A stretch of 64,000 nt of DNA from Prevotella sp. (lineage in GTDB: Bacteria; Bacteroidota; Bacteroidia; Bacteroidales; Bacteroidaceae). The notes below the pieces were generated by a model. It was not told where the DNA came from, made no database searches, and saw nothing but the letters and a program-made list of their open reading frames with translations. Both the position numbers and the translations under genes were made by a program. The stretch is taken from positions 44,154 through 108,153 of the forward strand of contig JAFTFO010000033.1 of assembly GCA_017449495.1 (NCBI GenBank). Reading direction: 5' to 3'. Of this stretch, positions 40,148 through 61,084 are shown piece after piece; within the stretch, counting starts at the first letter, position 1, and each line of letters starts with the position of its first letter.

Positions 40148-40166
40148 GGGTGCCCGGACGGACTCG
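40148..40166. other. Attachment core, left end of element 1
   Basis: GGGTGCCCGGACGGACTCG is repeated exactly at 52302-52320, and each copy is bordered on the low side by a terminator-like hairpin. On the minus strand it reads CGAGTCCGTCCGGGCACCC, like the T-arm plus acceptor strand of a tRNA 3' end. No complete tRNA was found nearby. Confidence 0.75.
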
Positions 40167-44910: not shown

Positions 44911-45132
44911 ATGGAAGATATTAATCGTCTAAAAATAGTTCTCGTAGAGAAAAAGAAAACAAGTAAATGGCTATCTGAACAATTGAAGATAACCCCATCT
45001 ACTGTTTCCAAATGGTGTACTAATACATCTCAACCTGATATTGGAACTCTTATTAAGATTTCGAAACTATTAAATATTTCAATAGAAGATTTAATAAACA
45101 AAGAATATGCAAACTCGGTGCTTCCAGAATGA
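44911..45132 (+). CDS. XRE-family transcriptional regulator, first cargo gene
   Basis: A 73-residue HTH_3 protein (WLSEQLKITPSTVSKWCTNT). A TATCTTTG -7 element lies at 44877-44884. Small Cro/CI-type regulators often lead defence operons and restriction-modification systems. It is followed after 57 bases by the HNH gene. Confidence 0.8.
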   Translation: MEDINRLKIVLVEKKKTSKWLSEQLKITPSTVSKWCTNTSQPDIGTLIKISKLLNISIEDLINKEYANSVLPE

Positions 45133-45189
45133 TTCCAAATAATAGTTGAATAGAGTATATAAAAATATCAACTTAAACAAGAGGAAACG

Positions 45190-46260
45190 ATGCAGATACC
45201 GCAATCCGACATATTGACCACGAATCGACTTGGGAAGATTTTCTCAAATACGGTGGCGACATACAAATTCTTTTGGTTTGTATCGATTATGCAGATACAT
45301 GCGAAATCGGACAACCCGAAAATCAGCGTGTGGGATGTTGTCATCAGAATGGTGGCTAATGCTTGGTATCCTATTCACTATTTCCGTTTGTCCTTTGGCA
45401 AGAGCGATTCGCTGTTTGATATTGTGATGGAATTGCAGCACATTACTCAGATTCCCATTGATGCCAATTCTCAGACGATTATTGACGGTTTGCAAAGCAG
45501 ATTGGATGACAAGCAAATAAAGCGTTTGTTGAATACGCTTACGTTGAACGTCCCCTATCGTTTTCTGCGTCCATGGATTGATACTTCTGATGACAAGGAG
45601 ATGGTCAGACGCTCCCAAACATTGGAGAATGGAAGTCTTTATGCTTTGTATAAAAATGGCTCGGATTTCTATATCGTTCTGAATCAGGCTTGGGATGCTT
45701 ATCTGCATACACACTATAACATTCTGGTGGATTTTGCCTATTGGAATCTGACATTGTTTCTACAAACAAGGAATCCCAATGTGCCAGCCATTCCAAATAA
45801 ACTGATACGCCCTGAAGTCAGAAACTCATTGACAAAGCAGCATAACTATTGGGATATGGTGATGACGATAGGAGGCCCTATTCATTGTATCTATACAGAT
45901 AAGTTGCTACATCCAAAAGACTATGATCTTGACCATTTTATTCCGTGGAGTTTCGTGTGTCATGATCTGCTATGGAATTTGATACCATCGAATGGTAGCA
46001 TCAATTCATCTAAGAGCGACAAGTTGCCAGACTTAGGCTTTTATCTGCCAAAACTCGCAGCATTGCAGCATCATTCCTTGCAAGTCTTAATCAATGCCGA
46101 TAGGGAGCCGAAGGTAATGGAGGACTTTGTGTCTCTTGGCTACTCAGCAAAAGATTTGGCTGCAATGAGTGAGGAGAAGTTTCGTGAAATCTACGAAAGA
46201 ACGTTTAACCCCATCAATCAGATAGCCCTCAATATGGGCTTCGAAACGTGGAAATACTAA
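45190..46260 (+). CDS. HNH endonuclease domain protein
   Basis: A 356-residue protein. The C-terminal part has an HNH fold: YDLDHFIPWSFVCHDLLWNL followed by IPSNGSINSSKSDKLP, with Asp-His and Asn in the expected places. The N-terminal 230 residues (VWDVVIRMVANAWYPIHYFR) are helical and unrecognised. The RBS GAGGAAACG precedes the ATG. The stop is five bases before the methyltransferase-HIT gene, so these form an operon. It could cut invading DNA or RNA; target recognition is unknown. Confidence 0.8.
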   Translation: MQIPQSDILTTNRLGKIFSNTVATYKFFWFVSIMQIHAKSDNPKISVWDVVIRMVANAWYPIHYFRLSFGKSDSLFDIVMELQHITQIPIDANSQTIIDGLQSRLDDKQIKRLLNTLTLNVPYRFLRPWIDTSDDKEMVRRSQTLENGSLYALYKNGSDFYIVLNQAWDAYLHTHYNILVDFAYWNLTLFLQTRNPNVPAIPNKLIRPEVRNSLTKQHNYWDMVMTIGGPIHCIYTDKLLHPKDYDLDHFIPWSFVCHDLLWNLIPSNGSINSSKSDKLPDLGFYLPKLAALQHHSLQVLINADREPKVMEDFVSLGYSAKDLAAMSEEKFREIYERTFNPINQIALNMGFETWKY

Positions 46261-46265
46261 CGACT

Positions 46266-47129
46266 ATGGAACCAGAGAAAATCAATCATCCGTATCTGAC
46301 AGCTATCAAGCGAACGGAATTATCCGTACCAACACGCTATCTTTTGCAGCACGACTTGCTAAAGGGGAAAATACTGGATTTCGGCTGCGGTTTTGGTTTC
46401 GACACGGATGATTTGAAGCGTCAGGGGTTTGACATAGTGGGCTATGATTATTATTATCGCCCTGATTATCCCGAAGGTAAGTTTGATACTATCATTTGCA
46501 ATTATGTCCTGAATGTGCTGGAACCGTATGCACAAGCAGAAGTGATGATGAACGTCACCAATCTGCTTTCGCCCAAAGGAACGGCATACTTTGCTGTGCG
46601 CAGAGACTTGACGGAAGAAGGTTTTAGGTTACATGCCATTCACAAGCAATACACCTATCAGTGTAATGTTAAGCTGCCCTATAAGAGTCTGGTAGCCAAT
46701 AAAAGTTATGAACTCTATCAATATCAGCACTTTAACAAATTGCCTCGTAAGGAAGGCGAAACATGCCCCTTCTGCCGTTTGTCGCGACGCGTTGAGATTA
46801 TTTGCGAGACAGCCACTTGTGTCGCTTTCTATGATGGCTATCCCGTCTCACCTGGGCACGCCCTGATTATTCCAAAACGTCATGTCGCTAATTACTTCGA
46901 CCTCACTAACCACGAGCGAGAAGCAATGAACGTCGTACTGCAATACGTGAAGCAAAAGGTTGACGAGCGTTTCCATCCCGATGGCTACAACGTGGGCATT
47001 AACATCAACGAAGCTGCAGGCCAGTCGGTATTCCATTGCCACATGCACTTGATACCAAGGTACAAGGGCGATGTGCCTAATCCGAAAGGTGGTGTGAGAG
47101 GTGTGATTCCAAGTAAACAGAAATATTAG
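46266..47129 (+). CDS. SAM methyltransferase fused to a HIT-family nucleotide hydrolase/transferase domain
   Basis: A 287-residue protein. Residues 30-155 are a class I methyltransferase (motif I ILDFGCGFGFD; later IICNYVLNVLE). A CPFC pair near residue 160 starts the HIT domain, which has GYPVSPGHALIIPKRHV and the active-site HCHMH at about 257-261 (HxHxH). HIT proteins act on nucleotide-phosphate bonds, and HIT transferases on nucleotidyl intermediates. The ATG at 46266 is preferred to the GTG at 46248. Function is unknown; adjacency to HNH and HD-Hsp90 genes suggests nucleotide- or nucleic-acid-directed defence. Confidence 0.83.
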   Translation: MEPEKINHPYLTAIKRTELSVPTRYLLQHDLLKGKILDFGCGFGFDTDDLKRQGFDIVGYDYYYRPDYPEGKFDTIICNYVLNVLEPYAQAEVMMNVTNLLSPKGTAYFAVRRDLTEEGFRLHAIHKQYTYQCNVKLPYKSLVANKSYELYQYQHFNKLPRKEGETCPFCRLSRRVEIICETATCVAFYDGYPVSPGHALIIPKRHVANYFDLTNHEREAMNVVLQYVKQKVDERFHPDGYNVGININEAAGQSVFHCHMHLIPRYKGDVPNPKGGVRGVIPSKQKY

Positions 47130-47163
47130 TTTTTACAAATACTAACAAAACAATTATTAGATT

Positions 47164-50094
47164 ATGAATTACATAGAAGAATTGCTGTTTGAGAAAACGA
47201 AAGATTTCAATGAAGGTCATGTATATGCTGATCAATGGAAGATAGCCAAATCGTATCTTCCTCAGGTGTTAGATACAATCTCTCATATTTTTCCCCATTA
47301 TAGTTTACATAACTCAACCCATTCGGAAGCAATCATTAATAACATAATAAGAATATTAGGAACTGACAGTATTAAAAAGTTGTCAGTTGTTGATTTATGG
47401 TTATTATTGGCGGCTGCATATTATCACGATTGTGGAATGGCTGTATCAGGTAGTGATAAAGAAAAAATGTTTGAAGGAGGAAGCGATTTTGTTAAATTTG
47501 TCGAAGACAAGCAACATGATCTACTATCTCCAATGAATCAATATGCAGTTCTATTCAATATAAAAGACAATAAGATTTATTATAAAGACGAATTATTGAC
47601 TCGTGAAAGTTATGAAGGAGCTCGTTTCTTAATTGCTGATTATATCCGTAATAAACATGCAGAAAGATCTGGAGATAGAATCGAAACAGAAGAATCCTTA
47701 CATTTTCCTGGCAACCCAATTCCAGACAGAATAATAAGGATATTAAAATCTATTTGTAGTTGTCATACAAAAGACATTAATAGTGTTATGGATTTGCAAT
47801 CTGTAGAATCTTCTGGGTGCGGTATTGACGATTGTCATCCACGCTTTGTTGCTGCAATGTTACGTTTAGGAGATTTACTGGATGTAGATAGCAATCGCAT
47901 TTCAGAAGTTCTTTTATCAACATTAGGAAGTATACCGTCTGATTCAAAATACTACAATAAAACCAATAGGGCAATAACTCATATTAGGATTGACAAATCC
48001 ATTATTGAAATAACAGCGGAATGTGACGATTATAATGTGGCAGATTTGATAAATAGATGGTTCCAATGGTTAAATGACGAACTTGTGTTTTATATGAAAC
48101 AATGGCATAGGATTGTACCACATGAATCCTTTAGCTATTTGCCAACTGTAGGTGACCTTAAAGTTAATTTGGCTAGTTATGATACATTTGATGGTAAAAA
48201 ACGCCCAAGTTTTGATATAGATCCATCAAAAGCAATTGAGTTGTTGCAAGGCGCAGGATTGTACTCTGATTCATGTGAATGCATAAGAGAATTACTGCAG
48301 AATGCAGTGGATGCGACTTACCTGCGCATATATAAAGAGAATCCAGGGATTAGCGATTTGAAAAAGTTCAAAGAAGAATGTACAAAATATCCTATAGTAG
48401 TAAAGTTGGATAAACATAACAATCCTGATAATAGTAATAAATGTACATATTGGCATGTCGAGATTGCAGATGAAGGTATTGGAATGACTAAAGACGATTT
48501 GAAATTTCTGTCTACAACGGGAAGTTCTGGGAAGAACACAGAAAAAAAACAACTGACAGAATCTGTTCCTGAATTTTTATGGCCATCAGGAACTTTTGGA
48601 ATTGGATTTCAAAGTGTTTTTTTAATTACAGATAAGGTTAATATTATCACTCGAAAACTTAATAAAGATTATTATATAGAAGCAGAGATGCATAATCCTT
48701 CGGGAAAGGAAAAAGGTGCAATTCTTATCAAATCTGTAAATAAAGAAGATATCAGATCCGGAACATCCTTATGCTTTGATTTTAAAGATGAGAATGAAGG
48801 ACATCAATTATTAGGTTATGAGGATCGATACTCTATGTCAGAGTTTAATTCTTTTGATTTTGCCAAAACAGAACATGTTAATTTGATTGGCATGAAAGTT
48901 ATGGATGAAATTGTACGTTTTGCAAGTGGAACTTTTATACCTGTTCATTTTATTTATGAGGGAAAAGAAAGAAAGTGTAAATTACAGAAATCAAAAATTG
49001 AATTTGAAGAAATTGATTTAGAAACGGGATTACAATTGTGTTTGGACAAATCTCATACAGGAATATCCTATCCTTATGATTCAATGGTATATTATCGTAA
49101 TCAATGGGTACGCAATTACGACCCGTACATTCCTTTTGTAACCTTGCATATTAATATATTAAAAGGTAGTGCAAAAGACATCTTGTCTCTAAGCCGAAAT
49201 CAGATAAGGAGAGAATACGAACCAATTCTTTTCGATAACATCAAAAAGTCTGCGATTAGGTATTTGAACCAGAAATTTGACACATTTGATAATATAAGGA
49301 AGCAGTTAGCTTCTATGTATATAGAATCTCAAAAAGAGTTTATTTCAAAAAACGATATTGCAAATGTTGTTTATAGGGATAATTGGAAACATTACGAATT
49401 AACTGTAAACAGAAAAGACTCTGATAATAGCGAAAAGTTTTCTATTGAGAAATTATTGCAGGCGAATACAATAGAATATATAAGCAAAGAGAATGAAATG
49501 GATCAATTAATATTTGATTATACAGATACTAAATACACAATGGCATTTGATTATAGACTAAGAAGTATTTGCTATTTTATGCTAAAAATGGCATCTTCAA
49601 ATTATCACTTGCAATTTAAAAAGGGAGGATATATCCTATCCAAAGAAACCGAATATGATTTAATTGATGACACAAAAGAAACGAAAGAAGAATTGATGTA
49701 TAATTATTTAAGAAGGGAAGAGCGTGCCAGAGAATTAATTCCCTGCAGTAAAAAATATCAGGTGTTACAAATCGACAGACACAAGTTAGATAAATATATA
49801 AATTTAGATAGTTATTTAGATTATTCGTGTATGATATGCCCGTATATCAGGAAATATGACATAGAACATGCAAATGAAGCGATATGCTTAGAATATGATG
49901 TTGATAATAAAGTTATCAATACAACATATGAAAATCGAATTGACCCTAATGTAACAAAAAAACAGATATCAGATGCGTATGCAGCATTTAAAAATGAATG
50001 GGACCCAATAGTTGAGAAGGTAAATTCTAAAGCGAAAAAAGATTCTTTGGATTCTAATTTGTATAGATGTAGAGCATTTAGGATTATATTATAA
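47164..50094 (+). CDS. Large HD-domain plus Hsp90-like (GHKL) ATPase protein
   Basis: A 976-residue protein, markedly more AT-rich than its neighbours. An N-terminal HD hydrolase-like domain has HNSTHSEAIINN (His 49, His 53) and YYHDCGM (His 88, Asp 89). From about residue 365 a GHKL ATPase domain has ECIRELLQNAVDAT, IADEGIGMTKDDLKF and SGTFGIGFQSVF, the Hsp90/MutL-type ATP lid and glycine motifs. The remaining 450 residues, including LHINILKGSAKDILSLSRNQ, resemble the middle region of Hsp90-like conflict-system proteins. HD domains often cleave nucleotides or cyclic nucleotides. Start ATG 47164 is 34 bases after the MTase-HIT stop. Confidence 0.85.
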   Translation: MNYIEELLFEKTKDFNEGHVYADQWKIAKSYLPQVLDTISHIFPHYSLHNSTHSEAIINNIIRILGTDSIKKLSVVDLWLLLAAAYYHDCGMAVSGSDKEKMFEGGSDFVKFVEDKQHDLLSPMNQYAVLFNIKDNKIYYKDELLTRESYEGARFLIADYIRNKHAERSGDRIETEESLHFPGNPIPDRIIRILKSICSCHTKDINSVMDLQSVESSGCGIDDCHPRFVAAMLRLGDLLDVDSNRISEVLLSTLGSIPSDSKYYNKTNRAITHIRIDKSIIEITAECDDYNVADLINRWFQWLNDELVFYMKQWHRIVPHESFSYLPTVGDLKVNLASYDTFDGKKRPSFDIDPSKAIELLQGAGLYSDSCECIRELLQNAVDATYLRIYKENPGISDLKKFKEECTKYPIVVKLDKHNNPDNSNKCTYWHVEIADEGIGMTKDDLKFLSTTGSSGKNTEKKQLTESVPEFLWPSGTFGIGFQSVFLITDKVNIITRKLNKDYYIEAEMHNPSGKEKGAILIKSVNKEDIRSGTSLCFDFKDENEGHQLLGYEDRYSMSEFNSFDFAKTEHVNLIGMKVMDEIVRFASGTFIPVHFIYEGKERKCKLQKSKIEFEEIDLETGLQLCLDKSHTGISYPYDSMVYYRNQWVRNYDPYIPFVTLHINILKGSAKDILSLSRNQIRREYEPILFDNIKKSAIRYLNQKFDTFDNIRKQLASMYIESQKEFISKNDIANVVYRDNWKHYELTVNRKDSDNSEKFSIEKLLQANTIEYISKENEMDQLIFDYTDTKYTMAFDYRLRSICYFMLKMASSNYHLQFKKGGYILSKETEYDLIDDTKETKEELMYNYLRREERARELIPCSKKYQVLQIDRHKLDKYINLDSYLDYSCMICPYIRKYDIEHANEAICLEYDVDNKVINTTYENRIDPNVTKKQISDAYAAFKNEWDPIVEKVNSKAKKDSLDSNLYRCRAFRIIL

Positions 50095-50232: not shown

Positions 50233-51717
50233 ATGAATATGAACGAGAAAACGATAAAGGAAGCACTGCTGAAAGGCGAGCGTGTAACGCTGGAATGCAA
50301 GAAAGCAAAATCTGAGGTTCCCAAAGAACTTTGGAATACGTACTCTGCCTTTGCGAATACTATCGGCGGCTTAATATTGCTTGGCATAGAGGAGCATCGG
50401 AAGGAAACTGACCCTGCCAAACGCTTTGAGATAATAGGTGTTGACAATCATCAGAAGATTCTGACGGACTTCTGGAACACCATCAACAGCGACAAGGTGA
50501 ATGAAAACATTCTTGTTGAGAAGGATGTTGAAGTAATTGATCTGGATGGAAAGAAGATAATATGTATCCATGTGCCTATGGCAGATTTCCGCATGAAGCC
50601 AATCTACCTGAACGGCAACGTTTATAAGGGAACGTATAGGCGTAACCATGAAGGTGATTACCATTGCACAGAGCGGCAGGTGAGAGCCATGATACGTGAC
50701 TCTTTTGAGGATGGCAATGATGGCATCCTGATTGAGCATTACAACATGGATGATATTGACCTCGACACGCTGCATCGTTATCGTACATTGTTCCGGGTAT
50801 GGAACAATGACCATGTATGGAACGAAGTAGATGACAAAACGTTCCTCAGGAATCTCGGAGGCTATATCGTCAATAGAGAAGAAGGGAAAGAGGGTTTGTC
50901 GATGGCTGGCTTGATGATGTTTGGAAAGGGGTTGCCTATACGGGAACGCTTCGATAATTTCCGCATGGACTACCTTAACTTCTGCAACCTTATTGGTGAG
51001 GAGCGCTATAGCGACCGCCTGACTTATGATGGGCGTTGGGAAAACAACTTGTATCAGTTCTTCAGCATCGTATTGCCAAAGATGACTTTCGACTTGCCGA
51101 GGCCGTTCCGTATGGAAGGCTTGCAGCGAGTAGATGACACACCTCAACACAAAGCTGTACGCGAAGCCTTTACCAACTCCATAATTCATGCAGACCTGAT
51201 GATGGATGCTGGTATTTTACGAATTGAGAAGCATGATGACCGTCTCTGCTTCCGTAATCCAGGATTGTTGAGATTGCCTATAGAGCTGATCTACGAAGGT
51301 GGCAACTCCAAGGCCCGTAACCCTCGCATCCAGAATATGCTTCGCATGGTAGGCTTTGGTGAGAACATTGGCTCTGGTTTCCCCAAGATCATTGCTGCTT
51401 GGAAAGAGACTGGTTGGGGCGAGCCTGAGTTGAAAAACAAGATAGAGGTAGACGAGGTGGAATTGGTTCTGCCAGTATCAGCTGTAACAACAAATGTCGT
51501 AAAAGATGTCGTAAAAGAACTAACTGATAGACAGCGAGTTATACTTGGACTAATAAAAGAGAATCCTTCGTTGAGCGCCAGTGAAATGTCACAAAAGACA
51601 GGCATGGTGATACGAACTATTCAAAGAGACTTGGCATCACTACACGAAAAAGGCATCCTCACTCGTGAAGGTGGCCGTAAAGAAGGTAAATGGGTAATAC
51701 TTAATATTTCGAAATAA
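50233..51717 (+). CDS. ATP-binding DNA-binding regulator (AlbA_2/Schlafen-like plus HATPase plus wHTH)
   Basis: A 494-residue protein. The N-terminal AlbA_2/Schlafen domain (VTLECKKAKSEVPKELWNTY, FANTIGGLILLGIEE) is followed by a HATPase_c_4 region (HKAVREAFTNSIIHADL, NIGSGFPKI) and a C-terminal winged HTH (SLSASEMSQKTGMVIRTIQR). It has its own promoter (TAACTTTG at 50215-50222). Such proteins are common in mobile elements and defence islands; it may be a separate cargo gene or the regulator of the upstream operon. Confidence 0.85.
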   Translation: MNMNEKTIKEALLKGERVTLECKKAKSEVPKELWNTYSAFANTIGGLILLGIEEHRKETDPAKRFEIIGVDNHQKILTDFWNTINSDKVNENILVEKDVEVIDLDGKKIICIHVPMADFRMKPIYLNGNVYKGTYRRNHEGDYHCTERQVRAMIRDSFEDGNDGILIEHYNMDDIDLDTLHRYRTLFRVWNNDHVWNEVDDKTFLRNLGGYIVNREEGKEGLSMAGLMMFGKGLPIRERFDNFRMDYLNFCNLIGEERYSDRLTYDGRWENNLYQFFSIVLPKMTFDLPRPFRMEGLQRVDDTPQHKAVREAFTNSIIHADLMMDAGILRIEKHDDRLCFRNPGLLRLPIELIYEGGNSKARNPRIQNMLRMVGFGENIGSGFPKIIAAWKETGWGEPELKNKIEVDEVELVLPVSAVTTNVVKDVVKELTDRQRVILGLIKENPSLSASEMSQKTGMVIRTIQRDLASLHEKGILTREGGRKEGKWVILNISK

Positions 51718-52301: not shown

Positions 52302-52320
52302 GGGTGCCCGGACGGACTCG
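52302..52320. other. Attachment core between elements 1 and 2
   Basis: Identical to 40148-40166. The adjoining hairpin (52262-52295, AAAGCCCCGTAAATC against GATTTACAGGACTTT) has the same design as the one at 40106-40144 but a different sequence, so the copies are not a recent simple duplication. Confidence 0.75.
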
Positions 52321-52437
52321 ATAAAGTTTTGTTAGTTTTCAGAAGATTTCAAATATTTTCAAAGTAATTGGTAATGAATAGGTTACATAAAGTTTTAAAG
52401 AGTTAAATAATTAAAATTATAGCATTGTTTTTCAAAA

Positions 52438-52459
52438 TGTGCCTACAATGTGCCTACAA
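52438..52459. repeat. Arm-type 11-bp tandem repeat, left end of element 2
   Basis: TGTGCCTACAA twice in tandem (52438-52448, 52449-52459), at the place equivalent to TCAGTATCAAA in element 1, just upstream of int. The different sequence implies a different arm specificity. Confidence 0.7.
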
Positions 52460-52510
52460 CTTTCAAAATAATTTTGTATATTTGTCGGCGAATTCAAAAA
52501 TAGATGAGTT

Positions 52511-54016
52511 ATGGCAGCGTTTTTTCTTCGAACTAAAAGGACTGAAGGTATAGCGAACCTCTATACCAGAGTCAAGAAGCGTAATCCATACATCAAATGG
52601 GAATACGTAAATACTGGCATTGGAGTTGACATCGAGACATGGCAAAAAGCCAACAGGTCAATTATCACATGGAATAAATTCATAGGAGGGGAAGGCAAGG
52701 AATTAAATGTAAAACTTGACAGGGTTTCTCAGACCATAGATATGCTTTTCGCAGAGAATAAACTTCAGTCAAATTCTGATAAAACAATTCTTGAGAATGC
52801 TTTGGCTCTGATAGCGAACAATGAGGCCATAAAAGCCAAGGAAGAAATCAAAGAACGTCAAAAAAAGGAGCAAGAACGTGCAAAAGCCGAAAATCTACGC
52901 AAACAGAAACAGATAGTTCATTTCTATGAATGCTTTGTAAATGGCATAGTAGAAGGATCTATTCGTTACGGAAAGGGCAGTGAGTACACAAAGAGTTCCA
53001 TTCAGATATGGAAAACATTTGGTCGCTACCTGAAAGAGTTTTGCCCAGAAGACAAAACTTTTGATGACGTGACAAGACTATTTGCTGATAATTTCCGACA
53101 GTTCCTCGAAAAAAAACAATTTATGGAGATGACCATCAACAAATATGTGACTTGTTTCCGCAAATTATGTAATCTTGCTGCAGAGGAAGGTATCAACAAT
53201 AATGCCGTGAGTCTTAAAGTATGGAAAGAGCGTACTGTGAAAGGTTCAGAGGCAAAGGCAGAAGTGTACTTGACAGAACATGAAATAGATTCGCTCTATG
53301 CGATGAGACTATCTGGTATAGAAGAGGCAGTAAGGGACGTATTCTTTCTTGGAATTTGCAGCGGTCAACGTGTCTCAGACTATGCTTCCCTTAATCGGAG
53401 CAATTTCAAAATAACAGACAGGGGAACCAATATCATTAGTTTATATCAGGTTAAGACAGGGACTTATGTGGAGATTCCAATTGTGGACGAACGTGCTTTT
53501 GAAATTTGCGAAAAGTATAACTACAAGTTCCCTGACGTGAACAAGCGAGACATTAACCGTTATATTAAAGTTATCCTTAAGCACCTCAGTGATTCTGTAC
53601 CTTCATTAAAGCAAGATTTCCCAACAACTCTGACAGCCATCGAACGCAGGAAAGAAGAACGCTATCTATCATACCAAAGAAGGATAGAGAGTGGGGAGAA
53701 GTTGATAGGCGAGGATCGTCATTATTATGTTAAGTTAAAACGTATCGCTGAAGAGCAACAAGGAAGTCCTATATTTAGGCGTGATGAGAATGGTAGAGTA
53801 GTCATGGCCAAGTATGAGTTGATAGGTACACATACAGCTCGTCGTTCAGCCCTTACCAATCTTTACAAGACTGGGTTGTTTGATACCCGTGAAATGATGA
53901 GTATCAGCGGACACAAATCCGAGAGGGTCTTTGAGCATTATATTCGAATGACTGCTACTGAGCAAGCTGATAGGATAGCAGAGAAGTTGAGAAAGTTAAA
54001 GAGTGGTCAACTATAG
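52511..54016 (+). CDS. int: Tyrosine recombinase (integrase) of element 2
   Basis: A 501-residue recombinase related to the element 1 integrase. The N-terminus MAAFFLRTKRTEGIANLYTR is the arm-binding domain; the catalytic residues appear in GICSGQRVSDYASL, HTARRSALTNLYKTG and SGHKSERVFEHYIRM (Arg, His-Arg, His, Tyr). The related core domains fit the shared att core; the divergent N-terminal part fits the different arm repeats. Confidence 0.92.
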   Translation: MAAFFLRTKRTEGIANLYTRVKKRNPYIKWEYVNTGIGVDIETWQKANRSIITWNKFIGGEGKELNVKLDRVSQTIDMLFAENKLQSNSDKTILENALALIANNEAIKAKEEIKERQKKEQERAKAENLRKQKQIVHFYECFVNGIVEGSIRYGKGSEYTKSSIQIWKTFGRYLKEFCPEDKTFDDVTRLFADNFRQFLEKKQFMEMTINKYVTCFRKLCNLAAEEGINNNAVSLKVWKERTVKGSEAKAEVYLTEHEIDSLYAMRLSGIEEAVRDVFFLGICSGQRVSDYASLNRSNFKITDRGTNIISLYQVKTGTYVEIPIVDERAFEICEKYNYKFPDVNKRDINRYIKVILKHLSDSVPSLKQDFPTTLTAIERRKEERYLSYQRRIESGEKLIGEDRHYYVKLKRIAEEQQGSPIFRRDENGRVVMAKYELIGTHTARRSALTNLYKTGLFDTREMMSISGHKSERVFEHYIRMTATEQADRIAEKLRKLKSGQL

Positions 54017-54041
54017 TATATATTAATAATGTGTAAGAGTT

Positions 54042-55019
54042 ATGATAGACAATTCACAAACTAAAAACATCGAAGTAGCCATCGAGGCTTTTAGAACAAT
54101 AAAAAAAGCTGTTCAAGAATACGGTTTCTGCCCTCGTGAACTTAAGACAACGCCATTGGATGAAGAAGACATGGACAATCCTGCACTCAGGCAAAGGTTA
54201 AGAAACAATTTCGATGAATATGCAAATATTTATGTTGCCATATACAATCGAGTGTTACCTGCATTGATAGAGAGTATGAGAAATATTGAATCAGAATATA
54301 ACTATCTGACGATTAATTCTCGTAATCTAAAGAAAGCATTAGACCTTTTCACATCTAAAATTTCAGAAAGCCTCATTGATTTAGAGGGCATATCGAAGAA
54401 GTCGGGGTACATGAAGTTTTTTATTGTGCCACTTAGATCATACTCAATAATATCGAATGAAGAAGCTGACATGTATTTTCAGAAGCTAAATGATATAAGT
54501 TGGAATTATTGTCAAGCAGCAATACATATACGTGATGTCTTTAAAATTAAACAGCCTTGGAGCACTCCTGAATGGGAAAAGAATCGGGGATTACTTGAGA
54601 ACATGATTAATGACCAAGAAAGCAGGGTACAAGATGAGAGGTCTGAGAGTCTGTCTGCAAAACAACCAATTAATTTTCAAGTCATGCGCAGTTATTCACC
54701 AAAAACAGGAACATTTGTCCCATATTCAAAACTTTACACATATCTTATAGAGGCTGGCAAAATCAAAGACATCGATGAATCAACTTTCAAAGATTGTATC
54801 ACCCATGCTAACTTTGTTAGTATCTATTTCAAAGGGAATCATGTTAATATGTTGTATGTCATTGAACAATTAGGCAATCTTTTCTTTGGAAAAGAGTGGC
54901 GCAAGGCTGCGTGTGAGTCAATAGAAGTGGATAATAACCATGTAACTAAAAACAAACCTTCGCAGAAATTTATGGATGATATTATGGCAATTTTGAAAGG
55001 TAAAGAGACGCAAAATTGA
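54042..55019 (+). CDS. Hypothetical protein following the element 2 integrase
   Basis: A 325-residue, mostly helical protein of unknown function, 25 bases after int. It has long amphipathic stretches (IYNRVLPALIESMRNIESEY) and a C-terminal INFQVMRSYSPKTGTF segment. It resembles RteC-like element regulators in size and position but I cannot confirm the family. Confidence 0.7.
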   Translation: MIDNSQTKNIEVAIEAFRTIKKAVQEYGFCPRELKTTPLDEEDMDNPALRQRLRNNFDEYANIYVAIYNRVLPALIESMRNIESEYNYLTINSRNLKKALDLFTSKISESLIDLEGISKKSGYMKFFIVPLRSYSIISNEEADMYFQKLNDISWNYCQAAIHIRDVFKIKQPWSTPEWEKNRGLLENMINDQESRVQDERSESLSAKQPINFQVMRSYSPKTGTFVPYSKLYTYLIEAGKIKDIDESTFKDCITHANFVSIYFKGNHVNMLYVIEQLGNLFFGKEWRKAACESIEVDNNHVTKNKPSQKFMDDIMAILKGKETQN

Positions 55020-55044
55020 AAAATACCATAGGGAGTACATATGG

Positions 55045-55075
55045 AGTCCATACCCATTAAAGGTATGGACTTTTT
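55045..55075 (+). terminator. Rho-independent terminator after the integrase module of element 2
   Basis: AGTCCATACC (55045-55054) pairs perfectly with GGTATGGACT (55062-55071) around a 7-base loop, followed by TTTTG. Confidence 0.85.
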
Positions 55076-55205
55076 GTATATAATTGGAAACCAATAATAT
55101 AGATGTGCTTTTTGGTTAATAGTAATACCATATTTTTTCTTTGCCTATATCTCTAAAAAAACCGAAATTTGCAGAAAATTTTAATAAATAACATAAGAAG
55201 GGCAT

Positions 55206-55514
55206 ATGGATACGTCACTAATTTCATTTAATGTCGAAGGCATTCAGGAAGCCGTAAGACAAGCCATTCGTGAAGAAATTGGCAAACAGGTAAGGAGCGT
55301 GGTTCAGCAGGAGTCTGTTAAACCTGAATATTACGAGAGAAAACAGCTTTGTGAATTCGGGCATATTTCTTCAAGCACATTATGGAGAATGGAAAGAGAG
55401 GGAGTAATAAAGAAGGTAAAATTCGGAAGGCGTAACTTATATTTAAAGACCGAAGTCGATGAACTTCTGTCCTCTGGCAAACTGGCAAAATATTCAAGAA
55501 GCAAACATACATAA
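55206..55514 (+). CDS. xis: Excisionase-like HTH protein of element 2
   Basis: A 102-residue homologue of the element 1 protein: shared NVEGIQEA, YYER-QLC, HISSSTLWRMEREGVI, KFGRRNLYLK and SGKLAKYSR. A winged HTH of the MerR/excisionase class. It lies before parA and may regulate the following operon. Confidence 0.82.
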   Translation: MDTSLISFNVEGIQEAVRQAIREEIGKQVRSVVQQESVKPEYYERKQLCEFGHISSSTLWRMEREGVIKKVKFGRRNLYLKTEVDELLSSGKLAKYSRSKHT

Positions 55515-55623
55515 TCCTAAAATGTTTACCCATTGAGTATTCCCTTATAATACTTAAGGGACTCCAAATTATTATAAAATATCAATTAGCTAATTCAAAT
55601 AGATTATTTAAAATAGTGTAATT

Positions 55624-56250
55624 ATGGCAAAAGTAATTGTTATTTCAAATTCTAAGGGTGGCACAGGCAAGAGTACACTCTGTATGCAGTTTGCTAATTA
55701 TTTGGCATTTCAAGGCAAAAAAGTCGCTGTGCTCGATTGTGACGAAGGTCAGTCTGTCATGGAACTCCGTCAGATGGAACTCCGTCAGAGTCAGGATGCC
55801 ACTCTCCCATGGGAAGTTTACAATGCGACCTCTAACTCTCGTCTTTTTGTTGAGAGAGCAAGGGCTATGGGAGAAGTCTATATTCTTGTTGATTGTCCTG
55901 GATCTCTAAATCCCAACCTTCTGCCCTTCTTCCAGAACGCAGATGCGATTGTTATACCTTTCCGATATGACGATGTCGTTGTGCTACGCACAATGACTTT
56001 TGTAAAGGTTCTCAATGTTGCCCGTATTACTGCAAAGAAGTTATTCTTACCGAACAATATTGACATTCGCGTTAAGAATCCCAACGAAGAGTCAATACGG
56101 GAAATGTTCCGCAAGATCGGGGCTATTCTGCCTCGAATCAAGCAGGGCGTTGCCATACAGAGAGTGTCTACGCTGAGACCTATTGATACATATCAGCAGA
56201 AGGCTATCATGTACACCGTTGAGGAGATTCTAAAAGCAGTTAATCCTTAG
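55624..56250 (+). CDS. parA: ParA-family partition ATPase
   Basis: A 208-residue P-loop ATPase with the deviant Walker A motif SKGGTGKST (residues 9-17), VAVLDCDEGQSVMEL and VYILVDCPGSLNP. It probably stabilises the element or places its excised form. A short tandem duplication (MELRQ MELRQ, residues about 47-56) is visible. The following small gene is its likely partner. Confidence 0.88.
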   Translation: MAKVIVISNSKGGTGKSTLCMQFANYLAFQGKKVAVLDCDEGQSVMELRQMELRQSQDATLPWEVYNATSNSRLFVERARAMGEVYILVDCPGSLNPNLLPFFQNADAIVIPFRYDDVVVLRTMTFVKVLNVARITAKKLFLPNNIDIRVKNPNEESIREMFRKIGAILPRIKQGVAIQRVSTLRPIDTYQQKAIMYTVEEILKAVNP

Positions 56251-56332
56251 TTCTATGAGTGTTTCTGTGTAATTAGTGGCATAAACACTTTTAAATAATT
56301 CAACTAAAGTAGTTCAATTAGTTAATTGTAAT

Positions 56333-56656
56333 ATGGCAAAGAATGATAACAAGTCTGCATTGACAACAAGTACGTTTGGCGAAATAAATTCAGAAAAAGC
56401 GCCAGAGCAGATGGGGCTCGAATCCCTTGGGTTAAAGAATCGTCCCTTAAAGGGTGCAGCAGCTGGCTGCAAGCCTGGCTCTATCAGGCATACGTATGTC
56501 ATGCCATTGGAAATGATAAGCAAGCTGAAAGCTATTGCAGGTTATTTCGGGAAGCCAGAAGTAGGCATTGTGTTGGAGATTCTTGAAAAAGGTATTGCTG
56601 ATTACGAGACCCAATATGGTTCTTGTGTGTCAGACATAAATAGAGGTAATAGTTAA
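56333..56656 (+). CDS. Small ParA-partner protein
   Basis: A 107-residue protein. The N-terminal 45 residues are low-complexity; residues 55-95 (RHTYVMPLEMISKLKAIAGY) look like a ribbon-helix-helix DNA-binding domain. Position after ParA suggests a ParB-like centromere-binding partner (inference). Confidence 0.65.
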   Translation: MAKNDNKSALTTSTFGEINSEKAPEQMGLESLGLKNRPLKGAAAGCKPGSIRHTYVMPLEMISKLKAIAGYFGKPEVGIVLEILEKGIADYETQYGSCVSDINRGNS

Positions 56657-56706
56657 TTTAGTAACAATAGTTATATTAGTTCAATTAGTTAATTTAAGAA
56701 ATAGAC

Positions 56707-57819
56707 ATGAGCAAACAAGTTAAAATCAAAGTAGATGCTGCAGCGTTTGAATATAGCAGCAAGAAATGGGCCGCAATCACAGGTATTGACCCTTCCAAGG
56801 TAACTCTCAGGCTTTCTAAAGGTGAAGGATTACCAAGCAGAGAAGATGCTGCAATAGTGGCTCAGTTAGACCAATTATTAATCGCTATTGAGAATTTCAA
56901 GCCGATGACACTCATGGGTGGCAAAGATGGGGCATACTATCATACACAGATTGCGATGTGGCATAAACATCTGTTATCTCTAAAGAAGAAATTGAAGAAA
57001 CAATCTAAGCCACAATATCTGGTTGATGTAGTGAACGGTATTTTAAAGGAGTCCAAGTCAAAACTTCGTTGCTCTCTTCTCATCTTAACCAAGTGCTTAC
57101 ACATCTTAGGCGAACAGAATCTTTCTCCAGAAACTATCGTTTCAACCATCATGGGCAATGAAAGTACAGACTGGGAGAAGTTGCCTGTTCCGCTCAATTT
57201 GGTAAAGAAAACATTAATGATCCATTGTCCTAAGACTTCCGATCAACAAGCCTCAGAACAAGATGTTGATGAGAGGAGTGCTCGTAAGCGTCTCACTCTT
57301 ACCGAACAAGTTATGATGATGTACATGTTTCCCTATTCTTGTCAGACCAAGGTTGACAATACTGAACTGGGCAACAAAATAAAGAACGACTTGCATGTTA
57401 TAGAAGAATACGTCAAGTGGGCCAGAGAATCAGCGATATTCCATCTCAATGATGTCTATAAGGCTCAGTTCAACTCATTCCGTTACAGATTACAGACATT
57501 GCCTCAGAAGAATGGTGATAAGAATACAGAAGAAACGCATTGTACAACAACTGAGATAAAGCAGAACAACACTCCGTTCGAAGTCGCTCTTGAGAAGCGT
57601 AAAAGGATGGAGGTCTTAACTGAGGACGATCAGCTTGCAATGCTAAAAGAGCGCCAATGTCCAAGATGTGGTCATACGATAGAACAGGCAGCGAATTTGA
57701 AGGGGGTAGCATACCTACGTTGTAATACCTGTAAATACTATGCAGGAATTGAGAATGGACAACCCTATGTGAACAGAGAGCACCTCGACGGAGTAACACC
57801 GATACGCCATGACAGTTAG
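56707..57819 (+). CDS. Element protein with C-terminal zinc ribbon
   Basis: A 370-residue protein of unknown function. It ends with a zinc-ribbon-like QCPRCGHTIEQAANL ... LRCNTCKYYAG. The middle is helical. It lies between the ParA module and the oriT-like site, which suggests a replication or transfer role. No family was recognised. Confidence 0.7.
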   Translation: MSKQVKIKVDAAAFEYSSKKWAAITGIDPSKVTLRLSKGEGLPSREDAAIVAQLDQLLIAIENFKPMTLMGGKDGAYYHTQIAMWHKHLLSLKKKLKKQSKPQYLVDVVNGILKESKSKLRCSLLILTKCLHILGEQNLSPETIVSTIMGNESTDWEKLPVPLNLVKKTLMIHCPKTSDQQASEQDVDERSARKRLTLTEQVMMMYMFPYSCQTKVDNTELGNKIKNDLHVIEEYVKWARESAIFHLNDVYKAQFNSFRYRLQTLPQKNGDKNTEETHCTTTEIKQNNTPFEVALEKRKRMEVLTEDDQLAMLKERQCPRCGHTIEQAANLKGVAYLRCNTCKYYAGIENGQPYVNREHLDGVTPIRHDS

Positions 57820-57861
57820 GCCGAAACGCGATGGGCAGCAATCTACACACCCGTGGGTAAT

Positions 57862-57920
57862 CAAGACTTGTTTTCAGGGCCCGAAAACGTCTTGCAAAAT
57901 TCACCTTTAAAGGTAAATTT
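57862..57920. other. Candidate oriT of element 2
   Basis: Two inverted repeats precede mobC. CAAGACTTGTTTTC (57862-57875) pairs with GAAAACGTCTTG (57883-57894) across AGGGCCC with a two-base bulge; AAATTCACCTTTAAAGGTAAATTT-type palindrome spans 57897-57920 with 11 of 12 pairs matching. The layout (IR beside a nic-like region, upstream of mobC and relaxase) is that of an oriT. Confidence 0.65.
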
Positions 57921-57984
57921 CGGATCAGAGTACTCGCAAGCTCGCACCTCTTTTCATAGTAGAAAAAACTAAAGTGAAATAATT

Positions 57985-58386
57985 ATGGTAGACAAAAGTA
58001 AATCTGGATATATCAAGAAAAGTCGTGGAAGAAAAAAGTCTTCTGACGGCTTTAAGGAGAATGTGCGCAAGGCACACAAAATCTACTTCAAGGATGATGA
58101 ATGGAAAACCATAACAAGCAAGGCAAATGCACTTGACATGGAACGTTCAGTTTATGTCCGCGAAGTTTCTCTCGGTTATAAGCCCGTCACACCTGACAGA
58201 GAATTCCGTCGTGAGTTGATGGCAGTGCGTGATGACTTGAAGAAGTTTTTTGCTTTCATCTCTGCACAACGTTGGACGCAGGATGAACGCATGAAAAAAC
58301 TGTGGGATATTGGCTTCCTTAAAACATGGTCTAAAGGCATCATGAAGGAGCTTGATTTTTTAAATAAATGGATAAGGAGATTCTAA
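57985..58386 (+). CDS. mobC: MobC-like mobilization accessory protein
   Basis: A 133-residue basic protein with an N-terminal KSGYIKKSRGRKKSSDGFKE stretch, then a ribbon-helix-helix-like region (HKIYFKDDEWKTITSKANAL) and an SVYVREVSLGYKP segment typical of relaxosome accessory proteins. It ends one base before the relaxase ATG, so the two are coupled. Confidence 0.78.
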   Translation: MVDKSKSGYIKKSRGRKKSSDGFKENVRKAHKIYFKDDEWKTITSKANALDMERSVYVREVSLGYKPVTPDREFRRELMAVRDDLKKFFAFISAQRWTQDERMKKLWDIGFLKTWSKGIMKELDFLNKWIRRF

Positions 58387-58387
58387 T

Positions 58388-60052
58388 ATGGCAACAGCAG
58401 TAGGACGAAGTATTCCGCATGGAAAAGCGTACACAGAATACTCGCAGAAAAAAGATGAGAATGGCATCCCCACAGCAGAGTTTGTTGGGGCCAAGAATAT
58501 GGTCGGGAACATTGACCTTATCTTCGAGCCGACGCAACTTGATGACCTATGGTTGGAACTGCAAGAGGCTGGCCGTGATTATGTCCGCAAAGGTAAGGAT
58601 GTCACACGCGACACCATTGTTATAGAGTTTTCACCATCTTCTGAAGAGTCTATCGGATGGACTCTCGATGATTGGATGAAGGCTGCCGAGGAACTTATTG
58701 ACAACATCGACGACATTCAGCTATACAAGCAGAGACGAGGCCCCAAGACCAAGGACTGGATCCGTGACGAGAACGGTGAGCCGGTGAAGTTCCCAGTACC
58801 GAAAACCGATTTGAAGAGCAGCAAGTGGTTCGCATTTCTGCATAGGGATTCCAAAAGCGGAATTCTCCATCTTCACATAACAATATCTCGCTATACTGAG
58901 GACAATCAGCTTAACTGCGATACTGACATTGCCAAGAAGACTGCTCAAGCATGCGAGAGACTTAATGTAAGTCGTGGATGGACGAAGGCGAAGGACATTC
59001 AGGCCGCACACATTGAGGAAATCAATAATGTCATCAACTCCATTATGGAAGAACTTAACGGCTATGATATCGATCTACCTGACTTCAAATCCAAGGTAGA
59101 AGCACAGACATTCAAGGACTACAAAGGACATGAACGACAGTATGAGCTTCAGTACCACCATGACAAGAACGGGAAGGTCGATGGTTATTCCGTCAAACGG
59201 GGTAACAGTGTTTATACTGCTAACCAGCTCGGCCAGAAGGTAGCGAACATCACAGCAGACCACAAGGAAGAAATCAAGGATGCTATCTATGATGTGCTGC
59301 GTAAGATGGACACACCGAAATTCGATTGGATGAAGTTTAAAGCAATGATGGAGTCCTCGGGCCGTTATCAACTTGAACTGATACGCGATTCCAAGGATGA
59401 CGTTGTCAGGTACAACGTCAAATGCGGTGGCAGGATATATAACGCTTCTCAGATTGGTGCGAATGTCACGGCATTGAAGATTTTACGTGAATATGAGCGC
59501 ATCAAGCGGGAACAGGAAAAACTTAGGCAACAGGCAACAGCCCAGGACAAACTCGTGGCAAAAACAGAACAGACGAAACAGCCTGTTACAAAAAACTCTG
59601 CATTGCCAAAATCCACCTCGCAGGAATCGGCAATCCAGTCTCCTGTGATAATGCATGAACCTACTCAGGGCGAACAGGAACGCAGGTCTGCTATCGACAA
59701 GACATTGGATGTATTGCAGAAGTTTGCCAAGTCTACCTTTAATGTGTTAGATGGTGATGAACGTGCCGATATAATACCAGGCATCATTGCGAATGCCATT
59801 AACAAGGGCTTTGCAACCAATACAGAGTCAGGTCTGGAGTTGTCTGCACGTGATCTGTTGAGTGCCTTCGACGAAAAGGCTGTTGATGGAGCATTGTCGG
59901 CTATTGCTCTATTTCCAATTCCTTCTTATGTGCCATCTGCTGGTGGTGTTGGAGGTGGCGGCAACAATGATCTACCGAAGAAGAAGGATGATGAATGGGA
60001 GTGGTGGAAGAAAAATGTCTTTCATGGAAGACGTAGCGGATGGAAACGGTAA
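58388..60052 (+). CDS. Relaxase/mobilization nuclease
   Basis: A 554-residue relaxase. The metal-binding HxH motif appears in SGILHLHITISRY near residue 160 and the conserved WFAFLHRDSKSG precedes it. The C-terminal half is a coiled coil and linker with a Gly-rich tail (GGVGGGGNNDLPKK). It cleaves and relays one strand at oriT during conjugative transfer using another element's secretion system. Catalytic Tyr is probably near the N-terminus (KAYTEY). Confidence 0.85.
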   Translation: MATAVGRSIPHGKAYTEYSQKKDENGIPTAEFVGAKNMVGNIDLIFEPTQLDDLWLELQEAGRDYVRKGKDVTRDTIVIEFSPSSEESIGWTLDDWMKAAEELIDNIDDIQLYKQRRGPKTKDWIRDENGEPVKFPVPKTDLKSSKWFAFLHRDSKSGILHLHITISRYTEDNQLNCDTDIAKKTAQACERLNVSRGWTKAKDIQAAHIEEINNVINSIMEELNGYDIDLPDFKSKVEAQTFKDYKGHERQYELQYHHDKNGKVDGYSVKRGNSVYTANQLGQKVANITADHKEEIKDAIYDVLRKMDTPKFDWMKFKAMMESSGRYQLELIRDSKDDVVRYNVKCGGRIYNASQIGANVTALKILREYERIKREQEKLRQQATAQDKLVAKTEQTKQPVTKNSALPKSTSQESAIQSPVIMHEPTQGEQERRSAIDKTLDVLQKFAKSTFNVLDGDERADIIPGIIANAINKGFATNTESGLELSARDLLSAFDEKAVDGALSAIALFPIPSYVPSAGGVGGGGNNDLPKKKDDEWEWWKKNVFHGRRSGWKR

Positions 60053-60067
60053 TAATAAATAATATCT

Positions 60068-61084
60068 ATGGCAGAAAACAGAAACATGTACGGCGGACAT
60101 GATGTTAGCGGTTATGTACCGCCAACATCAAATGCATTGCCATCGGAAAATCCTGATCAGGCACCAGATCTTAATATGGAGTATCTGGAGAAAGTCTCTT
60201 CAATTCTTGACAGAATGGAGAAAATGGAAGCTTTTGTTGCCTGTGATGATAAGCGAAGAAAGGCCTATGAGGAACAGCGGACTGCGGACATCAATGCTCT
60301 TAGAATTGCCGCCCATGACATAACAGAGGTTAAAAATAAGATCTGGGAGGCAGGCAGCAACACTGACGACATGCTGAAGGATATATCAGAACTTAAAAAA
60401 CAGGGTGTTGGTTTGTCGGCATCAGCCATGGAAATTCTGCAGGATGCAGGAGGCTCCATCAAGAAGGAAATGGCAGAGTACCTGGAAGGAGATTTTGTCG
60501 GACAGGTTGATGCCCATATGGACGGTCTGAAGAATAAGGTTGAGACTATCGAGGCTACTCACAGGCAGGCACTTGACAAACTGAAGCATGAATACGAAGA
60601 GAGCATCAACACACTTGAAAGTAAACAAGGTAAGTTGCTTGCTCAGGCCATCGAGGAACAAAATCGCATCATTATACCTTCTATGCCGTTCTGGTCAATA
60701 ATTTGCATTTTAGGGACAACTGTCCTCTGTGGATTCATGTGCTGGTTTAAGTTCTGGAAAACACCTGACAATGATGAAACAATGACTTATATGACCGTTG
60801 CTGTTATCGTAGAAGTCATATATTATGGGATGATGGCTTGGAACCACTTCACAGACAGCGAAAAACGAAAGAAGGGAAAAGCGAATGTGTTCAGTGTGAC
60901 ATTATCAGAAGCCATATACATTATATTAATGGCATTTGCTTCGATAGTATATATCGTGTGGTCGCAGTTGGATGTTATCGGTGGTAGAAAACTGCTGATA
61001 TACCTCTTACCTATAGTATTCGCATCCAATTTCATCTGGCTGCTTTTACGGGCGTTAGCATACGGAGTATTTCAAGAAGATTGA
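60068..61084 (+). CDS. Coiled-coil membrane protein of element 2
   Basis: A 338-residue protein: a long N-terminal coiled-coil region (about 30-205) followed by four membrane segments (about 215-230, 240-262, 277-300, 310-330). It lies 15 bases after the relaxase gene. Similar proteins occur after relaxases in Bacteroidetes mobilizable elements; function is unknown. Confidence 0.72.
   Translation: MAENRNMYGGHDVSGYVPPTSNALPSENPDQAPDLNMEYLEKVSSILDRMEKMEAFVACDDKRRKAYEEQRTADINALRIAAHDITEVKNKIWEAGSNTDDMLKDISELKKQGVGLSASAMEILQDAGGSIKKEMAEYLEGDFVGQVDAHMDGLKNKVETIEATHRQALDKLKHEYEESINTLESKQGKLLAQAIEEQNRIIIPSMPFWSIICILGTTVLCGFMCWFKFWKTPDNDETMTYMTVAVIVEVIYYGMMAWNHFTDSEKRKKGKANVFSVTLSEAIYIILMAFASIVYIVWSQLDVIGGRKLLIYLLPIVFASNFIWLLLRALAYGVFQED

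What the first reader, a model, noticed from the sequence alone, without database searches (positions are those of the whole stretch)
44911..50094. Candidate defence operon: XRE regulator, HNH nuclease, methyltransferase-HIT fusion and HD-Hsp90-like ATPase
Seen: four same-strand genes, tightly spaced, inside an integrative element at the position where a relaxase would follow mobC. Known: HNH nucleases, HD hydrolases, GHKL ATPases (for example MutL-like proteins in the MZA system) and small XRE regulators recur in prokaryotic immune systems. I do not know a described system with this combination. Inference: the HD-Hsp90 protein may sense a trigger, MTase-HIT may make or protect a nucleotide or nucleic-acid product, and HNH may be the effector.
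Basis: partly seen in the sequence, partly recalled or inferred. Interest (0 to 1): 0.9.

Follow-up and report, generated by a model that had tools for sequence, protein, structure and literature searches.

The report
Nuclease and methyltransferase-HIT defence pair

Summary
The four genes are real; the four-gene system is not supported. In the 80 best homologous loci the HNH gene lies upstream of MTase-HIT in 79, a similar XRE in 26, HD-HSP90 in 0. HD-HSP90 matches in 7 of 296 genomes, and its 6 other carriers are not among the 14 other MTase-HIT carriers. The conserved unit is HNH + MTase-HIT, sometimes behind XRE. The next gene varies from locus to locus and is often of defence type (control). 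In 10 of 79 loci, intact or remnant SspB/SspC/SspD phosphorothioation genes lie upstream; on plasmids, HNH relatives lie near phosphorothioation-type genes in 6 of 12 loci opened. HNH and MTase-HIT stay under purifying selection where writers are absent. I read it as an uncatalogued nuclease module with a link to phosphorothioation systems, usually writer-less, its nuclease probably gated by MTase-HIT (inferred). HD-HSP90 would be swappable cargo. Against a fixed link: 22 of 25 SspB-like loci in Bacteroidota lack this HNH, and most pair loci show no Ssp trace. No HNH model was obtained.

The parts
44911..45132 (+). XRE/Cro-type regulator; similar to the XRE that heads the SspBCD-HNH-MTase-HIT operon of L109
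   Evidence: PF13443 E 1.2e-11; 57% identical over 65 aa to the L109 XRE; present upstream of HNH in 26 of 80 loci, adjacent in 17 and with other sequence or genes in between in 9
45190..46260 (+). HNH nuclease, 356 aa: about 230-aa N-terminal region of unknown fold, then HNH_4 core
   Evidence: PF13395; C233, D248, H249, N263 and N272 invariant in 47 aligned sequences, window included; dN/dS 0.03-0.07 against 9 relatives
46266..47129 (+). Class I SAM methyltransferase fused to a HIT domain, 287 aa (GTG at 46248 is an alternative start)
   Evidence: PF13489 and PF01230; sub-threshold TIGR04096 match, 61.2 bits against a cut-off of 150; all three triad His invariant in 24 close sequences, but L043 and L044 of the wider 15 each lack one; dN/dS 0.011-0.046 against 6 relatives; model pLDDT 74.7, top hits HIT proteins
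47164..50094 (+). HD-CE + HSP90-like (GHKL) protein, 976 aa; read here as separate cargo downstream of the pair
   Evidence: PF24391 E 4.5e-48; 0 of 80 MTase-HIT loci carry it; relatives on Hymenobacter and Pantoea plasmids have other neighbours
50233..51717 (+). AlbA_2/Schlafen-type protein, further cargo of the same element
   Evidence: PF04326 and PF13749; similar genes in 16 of 80 loci at variable positions
40148..40166 (.). left copy of the 19-bp direct repeat bounding the integrative element
52302..52320 (.). right copy of the same 19-bp repeat

Best explanation
The functional unit is a two-gene module, HNH nuclease + MTase-HIT, sometimes under an XRE regulator. Shown: the pair is co-conserved across Bacteroidota, both genes are under purifying selection, the pair sits among many unrelated defence-type genes, and in some loci it follows SspB-SspC-SspD phosphorothioate (PT) writer genes, in others only stubs of them. 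Inferred: HNH is the DNA-cutting effector of an Ssp-type system or a derivative of one, and in the window it works without writers. Because the pair persists with and without writers, HNH is unlikely to be a nuclease held off by PT marks alone. MTase-HIT, its constant partner, most likely gates it: it makes or removes a small nucleotide-type group (on a nucleotide, a DNA end or HNH itself), and infection disturbs that balance and frees the nuclease. HD-HSP90 is an independent defence-type gene carried in the slot behind the module.
For: Pair conserved: 13 of 14 full-length MTase-HIT genomes have this HNH family upstream, and the 14th has another HNH protein; 79 of 80 in the wider scan. HIT-only genes have a similar HNH upstream in 4 of 6 opened loci. 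Selection. Defence context: 55 downstream genes match 250 PADLOC models, 55 control genes match 5, at E 1e-10 (models, many redundant, not genes); individual partners. PT link: SspB E 1.7e-88, SspC E 0, SspD E 4.6e-74 upstream of HNH/MTase-HIT in L109; Ssp genes or stubs in 10 of 79 loci, none in 20 control loci; plasmid relatives of HNH near PT-type genes in 6 of 12; one MTase-HIT (L042) preceded by an HNH_2 protein matching a solved chain named SBDHga1, 8h0l, E 2.3e-7. Stubs keep gene ends: L060 has SspB 1-38 followed by SspC 1041-1072.
Against: 22 of 25 SspB-like (DUF4007) loci in 395 Bacteroidota genomes lack this HNH, so Ssp may be just one of many companions. 69 of 79 HNH/MTase-HIT loci show no Ssp trace, though 30 of the 79 have under 6.5 kb upstream. 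Three further plasmid loci with partial HNH matches show no PT genes. The MTase misses the TIGR04096 cut-off. The HNH N-terminus shows no significant match to the sulfur-binding-type HNH protein (hhalign probability 0.6%). Two of 15 diverse MTase-HIT sequences lack one triad His. No biochemical or phage data; gating is inference only. The 80 loci are those nearest the query, not an even sample.
Confidence: 0.55

Rival explanations
1. One reading: XRE, HNH, MTase-HIT and HD-HSP90 act as one defence operon with HD-HSP90 as the sensor.
For: Same strand, short gaps; parts of HD-HSP90 resemble defence proteins (RT_UG24 E 3.3e-17, TmtA E 5.6e-7).
Against: 0 of 80 homologous loci contain HD-HSP90; 64 of the 77 loci listed have more than 3 kb of downstream sequence in which it could have been seen; no shared carriers among 296 genomes apart from the window's own.
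Confidence: 0.04
2. Type IV-like restriction: HNH reads PT-modified or otherwise modified incoming DNA and cuts it; HIT removes sulfur from released nucleoside 5'-phosphorothioates and the MTase deals with the sulfide or thio-product.
For: PT genes near relatives; SBD-type HNH before one MTase-HIT; HINT1, a HIT enzyme, acts on dGMPS with H2S release (PMC8775712, abstract).
Against: Pairs beside apparently intact SspBCD (L078, L109) would attack their own DNA if PT were the trigger; no significant SBD similarity of this HNH; MTase-HIT is conserved where no PT genes are visible.
Confidence: 0.2
3. Restriction-modification-like pair: MTase-HIT marks self DNA, HNH cuts unmarked DNA, with HNH variants carrying different specificities.
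For: Constant pairing; HNH changes much faster than MTase-HIT, with 177 of 2346 pairs (68 loci and the window) showing MTase-HIT at least 90% identical but HNH under 56%.
Against: No Type II DNA MTase model is among the matches at E 1 and no amino-MTase motif (D/N/S)PP(Y/F/W) is visible (by eye, motif recalled); a fixed marking enzyme with diverging nucleases is the reverse of what matched specificities predict; I know of no role for HIT in R-M (recalled).
Confidence: 0.15
4. Addiction-type or otherwise selfish pair (nuclease toxin plus antidote enzyme) that rides in defence islands and stabilises whatever lies beside it.
For: Very varied neighbours; occurs behind what looks like an ATP synthase operon in L032 and L035 (genes named by eye); DUF3791/DUF3990 small genes also in the Ssp slot.
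Against: Recurrent physical link of HNH with PT-type genes across phyla is more specific than random riding.
Confidence: 0.15

Closest known systems
SspABCD-SspE / SspFGH phosphorothioation defence
   Same: L109 and L078 have SspB, SspC and SspD directly upstream of HNH and MTase-HIT; SspE has DNA-nicking nuclease activity in its C-terminal domain (PMC9646914, abstract).
   Different: Window has no SspB, C or D. Its HNH is HNH_4 with an unknown N-terminal region, not the DUF262 + DUF1524 HNH layout that PMC11662687 (passages) gives for DndI and likens to SspE.
IscS-DndBCDE-DndI
   Same: PT-linked single HNH nuclease.
   Different: DndI harms cells that lack PT (PMC11662687, passages), whereas this HNH persists under purifying selection without visible writers.
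wHTH(SBD)-SAD-HNH enzymes in Dnd neighbourhoods
   Same: HNH enzymes with a PT-reader domain next to PT genes (PMC10853773, passages); L042 carries a protein with a match to a solved SBD before MTase-HIT.
   Different: The window HNH shows no significant similarity to that L042 protein.
TIGR04096 DNA phosphorothioation-associated putative methyltransferase
   Same: N-terminal MTase half aligns, E 7.7e-17; the Synechocystis protein annotated with this name, about 5 kb from an HNH relative, aligns with Bacteroidota MTase-HIT at 28-45% over roughly 80-160 aa.
   Different: Below the family cut-off; fused to HIT; shorter than the 478-position model.
HIT hydrolases, and ThsC, the HIT protein found with 2.4% of Thoeris systems
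   Same: Fold and triad; ThsC is a precedent for a HIT gene as an optional companion of a defence system (PMC8565338, passages); HIT part matches ThsC, E 6.5e-11.
   Different: Here HIT is fused to a methyltransferase and tied to a nuclease.

Membership tests
   HD-HSP90 in 0 of 80 loci
HNH/MTase-HIT module (proposed) | HNH upstream of MTase-HIT | tested here: met
   79 of 80, with a further ORF in between in 5 of them and only part of HNH in L090 and L132; 13 of 14 in the phylum scan
Ssp phosphorothioation system | SspB, SspC and SspD in the locus | tested here: not met
   tblastn of the L109/L083 Ssp-operon proteins against the window found only the XRE
Ssp phosphorothioation system | SspB (DUF4007) elsewhere in the genome | tested here: inconclusive
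   not found in the own assembly, which is 68% complete; positive control G267 rang
SspE/DndI effector | DUF262 N-terminus and DUF1524 HNH | tested here: not met
   HNH_4 was the only Pfam match at E 1
TIGR04096 PT-associated methyltransferase | score at or above the curated cut-off of 150 bits | tested here: not met
   61.2 bits
Sulfur-binding-domain HNH | SBD/wHTH N-terminal domain | tested here: inconclusive
   hhalign probability 0.6% against one such protein; no HNH model could be made
HIT superfamily | PF01230 above cut-off and HxHxH triad | tested here: met
   90.7 against 21.5 bits; triad present in the window and invariant in 24 rows
Type II restriction-modification | DNA methyltransferase | tested here: not met
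   no MTase_II model among PADLOC matches at E 1 or less; HMMER filters can hide weak matches
Anti-phage system | protects cells from phage or plasmid | not testable with these tools
   needs an assay

The most novel reading that the evidence does not exclude
XRE ... HNH-MTase-HIT is an exchange chassis: a constant, self-contained nuclease gate with two swap slots, one between XRE and HNH (PT writers, other genes or nothing) and one behind MTase-HIT (Wadjet, Argonaute-type, helicase and restriction genes, HD-HSP90). MTase-HIT would be a new type of control enzyme, using SAM and nucleotide chemistry to arm the nuclease, and would explain how a PT-system nuclease can live without its PT mark.
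Probability: 0.2. Interest if true: 0.85.

Novelty: new variant of a known kind. Interest (0 to 1): 0.6.

Why it matters
[quoted passage not shown] An HNH + MTase-HIT pair directly behind SspBCD is a concrete candidate partner in a few of them. The reverse case, a conserved nuclease pair left where the writers have gone, contrasts with the toxicity reported for DndI in cells without PT (PMC11662687, passages), and makes the self/non-self question testable with two genes. PADLOC 2.0.0 matches only parts of the two proteins: the HNH core, the HIT part and a short MTase stretch. My paper searches for HNH with HIT or histidine triad and defence terms and for the PT-linked methyltransferase turned up no description of the pair: searches found no paper; the one paper (PMC8565338, passages) reports a HIT gene with Thoeris, not this pair; the one I saw only as a listing. 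Only open-licence papers are held there.

Tried and rejected
Four-gene operon: rejected. Simple Type II R-M: disfavoured. Cas9/IscB relative: the HNH core resembles Cas9 HNH only weakly (E 2.5e-4; TIGR01865 E 6.8e-4), and HNH_4 was the only Pfam match; not pursued. Thoeris ThsC matched the HIT part only; generic HIT similarity. SBD identity of the HNH N-terminus: tested, not significant. Swapped domain inside HNH: identity is low along the whole gene in discordant pairs, so gene-level exchange or divergence. Phage collection: only matches over the HIT part. Plasmid search with the MTase part: none. Viral contigs: one HIT-level locus. MTase-HIT model against PDB: HIT hits and poor MTase superpositions (rmsd about 18), little added. 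Recurrent 401-197-1220-287 gene set: only weak JetC/JetD similarity, so Wadjet-like at most.

Rows dropped before counts: 11 of 80 loci in the downstream-gap count (contig ends or broken MTase-HIT); 25 of 80 loci gave no qualifying downstream gene for A4; the 55 control genes come from 19 of the 20 control stretches; identity pairs use 68 of 80 loci plus the window; dN/dS was computed for 11 chosen loci, and saturated pairs are left out (5 of 11 for MTase-HIT, 2 of 11 for HNH); 30 of 79 loci have under 6.5 kb upstream of HNH, so Ssp genes may be missed. Of 15 plasmid records with at least 80% HNH coverage I opened 12; the other three are further Synechocystis copies. Three of the seven weaker records were opened too.
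Full report
Observation. Spacing is tight: 57 bases from XRE to HNH, 5 from HNH to the likely ATG of MTase-HIT at 46266, 34 to HD-HSP90, then 138 to an AlbA_2/Schlafen-type gene. GC content falls from mostly 0.50-0.60 to 0.30-0.46 at position 40000, and a 19-bp repeat at 40148 and 52302 brackets the segment, so I read it as an integrative element with the genes as cargo.

Which genes belong together. I searched 296 Bacteroidota genomes with MTase-HIT: 14 besides the own one hold a full-length or nearly full-length relative. In 13 of them a homologue of the window's HNH lies upstream; in the 14th (L042) another HNH protein does (HNH_2). Of six loci opened for HIT-only relatives (L046-L051), four have a similar HNH upstream. 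HNH is found upstream in 79 of 80, with another ORF in between in 5 of these and only as a fragment in L090 and L132; a similar XRE in 26; HD-HSP90 in 0 and the MobC-like gene in 0. HD-HSP90 itself matches in 7 of 296 genomes at E 1e-15, own included; none of the other six is an MTase-HIT carrier. On plasmids its relatives have other neighbours: a recombinase gene 36 bases upstream in Hymenobacter, no close same-strand gene listed in Pantoea (the plasmid gene tables are incomplete). The four-gene system is therefore not supported. HNH/MTase-HIT is.

What lies beside the pair. Of 69 loci where the next gene could be judged, 59 have it on the same strand and 35 within 50 bases; short gaps are common in bacterial genomes, so this alone proves little. 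The next gene differs from locus to locus: Wadjet JetA, with JetC behind it (E 4e-184 and 0), an Argonaute-associated TIR protein (Aga_TIR, E 6e-145), a Type II-like methylase followed by a GajB-like helicase, UvrD helicase, GmrSD, Mrr-nSTAND3, DUF4268, HerA, HNH_3, a weak CAP12-type TIR match below its cut-off, and AlbA_2 proteins. Several next genes had no Pfam match (3 of 10, 2). At E 1e-10, 55 such downstream genes match 250 PADLOC models; 55 genes from 19 arbitrary stretches of Bacteroidota genomes match 5. These are models, many of them redundant, not counts of genes, and the control comes from other species of the phylum. The upstream side is variable too: of 26 loci with XRE, 17 have it next to HNH and 9 have 0.9-6 kb in between.

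The phosphorothioation link. In L109 the order is XRE, SspB (DUF4007), SspC, DUF3791, DUF3990, a small ORF, SspD, HNH, MTase-HIT, with PADLOC matches SspB 1.7e-88, SspC 0, SspD 4.6e-74. L078 has the same order, with only a partial XRE match. L083 and L119 have SspB, SspC and an ABC/OLD-like ATPase gene (L083 scanned) and no SspD match. L043 has SspB and a short SspC-like gene. In all, 10 of 79 HNH loci have SspB, SspC or SspD sequence within 7.5 kb upstream, against 0 of 20 control loci (overlapping but not identical query set). Six of the ten hold only stubs of writer genes: SspB 1-38 followed by SspC 1041-1072 and SspD 1-37 in L060; SspB 1-100 and SspC 1009-1072 in L079; SspB 1-43 in L068; SspB 4-23 in L106; SspB 1-29 in L137; SspD 1-37 in L077. 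A further case from another family, G023, has a short SspB before the start of HNH at a contig end. The simplest reading is repeated loss or replacement of writer genes with the pair kept. Outside Bacteroidales, 12 plasmid loci with near-complete HNH relatives were opened; 6 hold a cysteine desulfurase, SspB/SspC/SspD-like or DndB genes (Hymenobacter, Synechocystis, Synechococcus NIES-970, Cyanobacterium HL-69, Geminocystis, Leptolyngbya) and 6 do not (Nostoc, Annamia, Allochromatium, Calothrix, Methylorubrum, Sinorhizobium). NIES-970 and Leptolyngbya hold only some of these genes in the stretch seen. Three loci with partial HNH matches hold none. In L042 the HNH partner matches a solved chain named SBDHga1 (8h0l, E 2.3e-7), which I take to be a sulfur-binding domain from its name.

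Evidence that limits this link. DUF4007 occurs in 25 of 395 Bacteroidota genomes; 20 of these 25 loci have SspB, SspC and SspD by similarity, but only 3 of 25 have this HNH nearby. So it is not the usual partner of Ssp. Of 79 pair loci 69 show no Ssp trace. The window shows none, and its 68%-complete genome has no detectable DUF4007. Ssp could be one more companion among many.

Selection and exchange. Against chosen relatives dN/dS is 0.03-0.07 for HNH (9 pairs) and 0.011-0.046 for MTase-HIT (6 pairs); other pairs, and some of these nearly, are saturated at synonymous sites. The relatives include loci where XRE directly precedes HNH, without writers (L059, L061, L062). MTase-HIT is far more uniform than HNH; in 177 of 2346 pairs MTase-HIT is at least 90% identical while HNH is under 56%. 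The pair is kept, the nuclease changes.

Mechanism. Shown by sequence: HNH core with conserved D, H and N residues; SAM-binding motif and HIT triad, though 2 of 15 diverse MTase-HIT sequences lack one triad His; HIT and class I MTase similarity. Inferred: HNH cuts DNA; MTase-HIT keeps it in check or arms it. The reasoning: DndI is reported to harm PT-deficient cells and SspE to need PT (PMC11662687, passages; PMC9646914, abstract), so a nuclease kept both with and without writers needs another control, and MTase-HIT is the most constant candidate. Its chemistry is unknown. A HIT enzyme acting on a sulfur-bearing nucleotide has a precedent (HINT1 on dGMPS with H2S release, PMC8775712, abstract). 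I give the gating step about 0.3 and the module-level statement about 0.8; the combined figure is 0.55.

Novelty. Two surveys by Rakesh and colleagues (PMC10853773, PMC12839542; abstracts, outlines and passages) describe HNH enzymes in Dnd and BREX neighbourhoods. The word HIT does not occur in the first; it occurs four times in the second, and the uses I saw are CD-HIT and 'top hit'. PADLOC has no full-length match. I file it as a new variant of a known kind: PT-linked HNH defence with a new constant partner and writer-less forms.

Noticed in passing
window 52302-61084: A second integrative element seems to start right behind the first, with its own integrase, ParA-like gene, a small MobC-like gene (57985-58386) and a 554-aa relaxase-like ORF (58388-60052), named by eye; the first element has cargo where the second has the relaxase-like gene.
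   Followed up: partly
L059, L073, L074 and others (14 of 24 rows of alignment A7): MTase-HIT carries a C-terminal extension that looks like a Myb/SANT-type helix-turn-helix (by eye); the window's copy lacks it.
   Followed up: no
L164 4681-6411 (Roseomonas mucosa plasmid): A single 576-aa protein joins a class I methyltransferase to an HNH resembling this family, independent support for an MTase-HNH link; its MTase resembles mad2.
   Followed up: partly
L133, L068-L071, L076, L131, L136 downstream of MTase-HIT; L127 upstream: A recurrent gene set of about 401, 197, 1220 and 287 aa with only weak JetC/JetD similarity; possibly a divergent Wadjet-like system.
   Followed up: partly
L109 and L078, between SspC and SspD: DUF3791 and DUF3990 small genes sit inside the Ssp operon; similar small genes remain in L060 and L079, where most of SspB and SspC is gone.
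   Followed up: no
L192 6801-11464: HNH relative without MTase-HIT, beside a PAPS-reductase-like gene and a 663-aa gene whose N-terminus looks DUF262-like (by eye).
   Followed up: no
L015/L045: The most divergent of the 14 MTase-HIT matches (39% identity) has a TGA inside the aligned frame.
   Followed up: no
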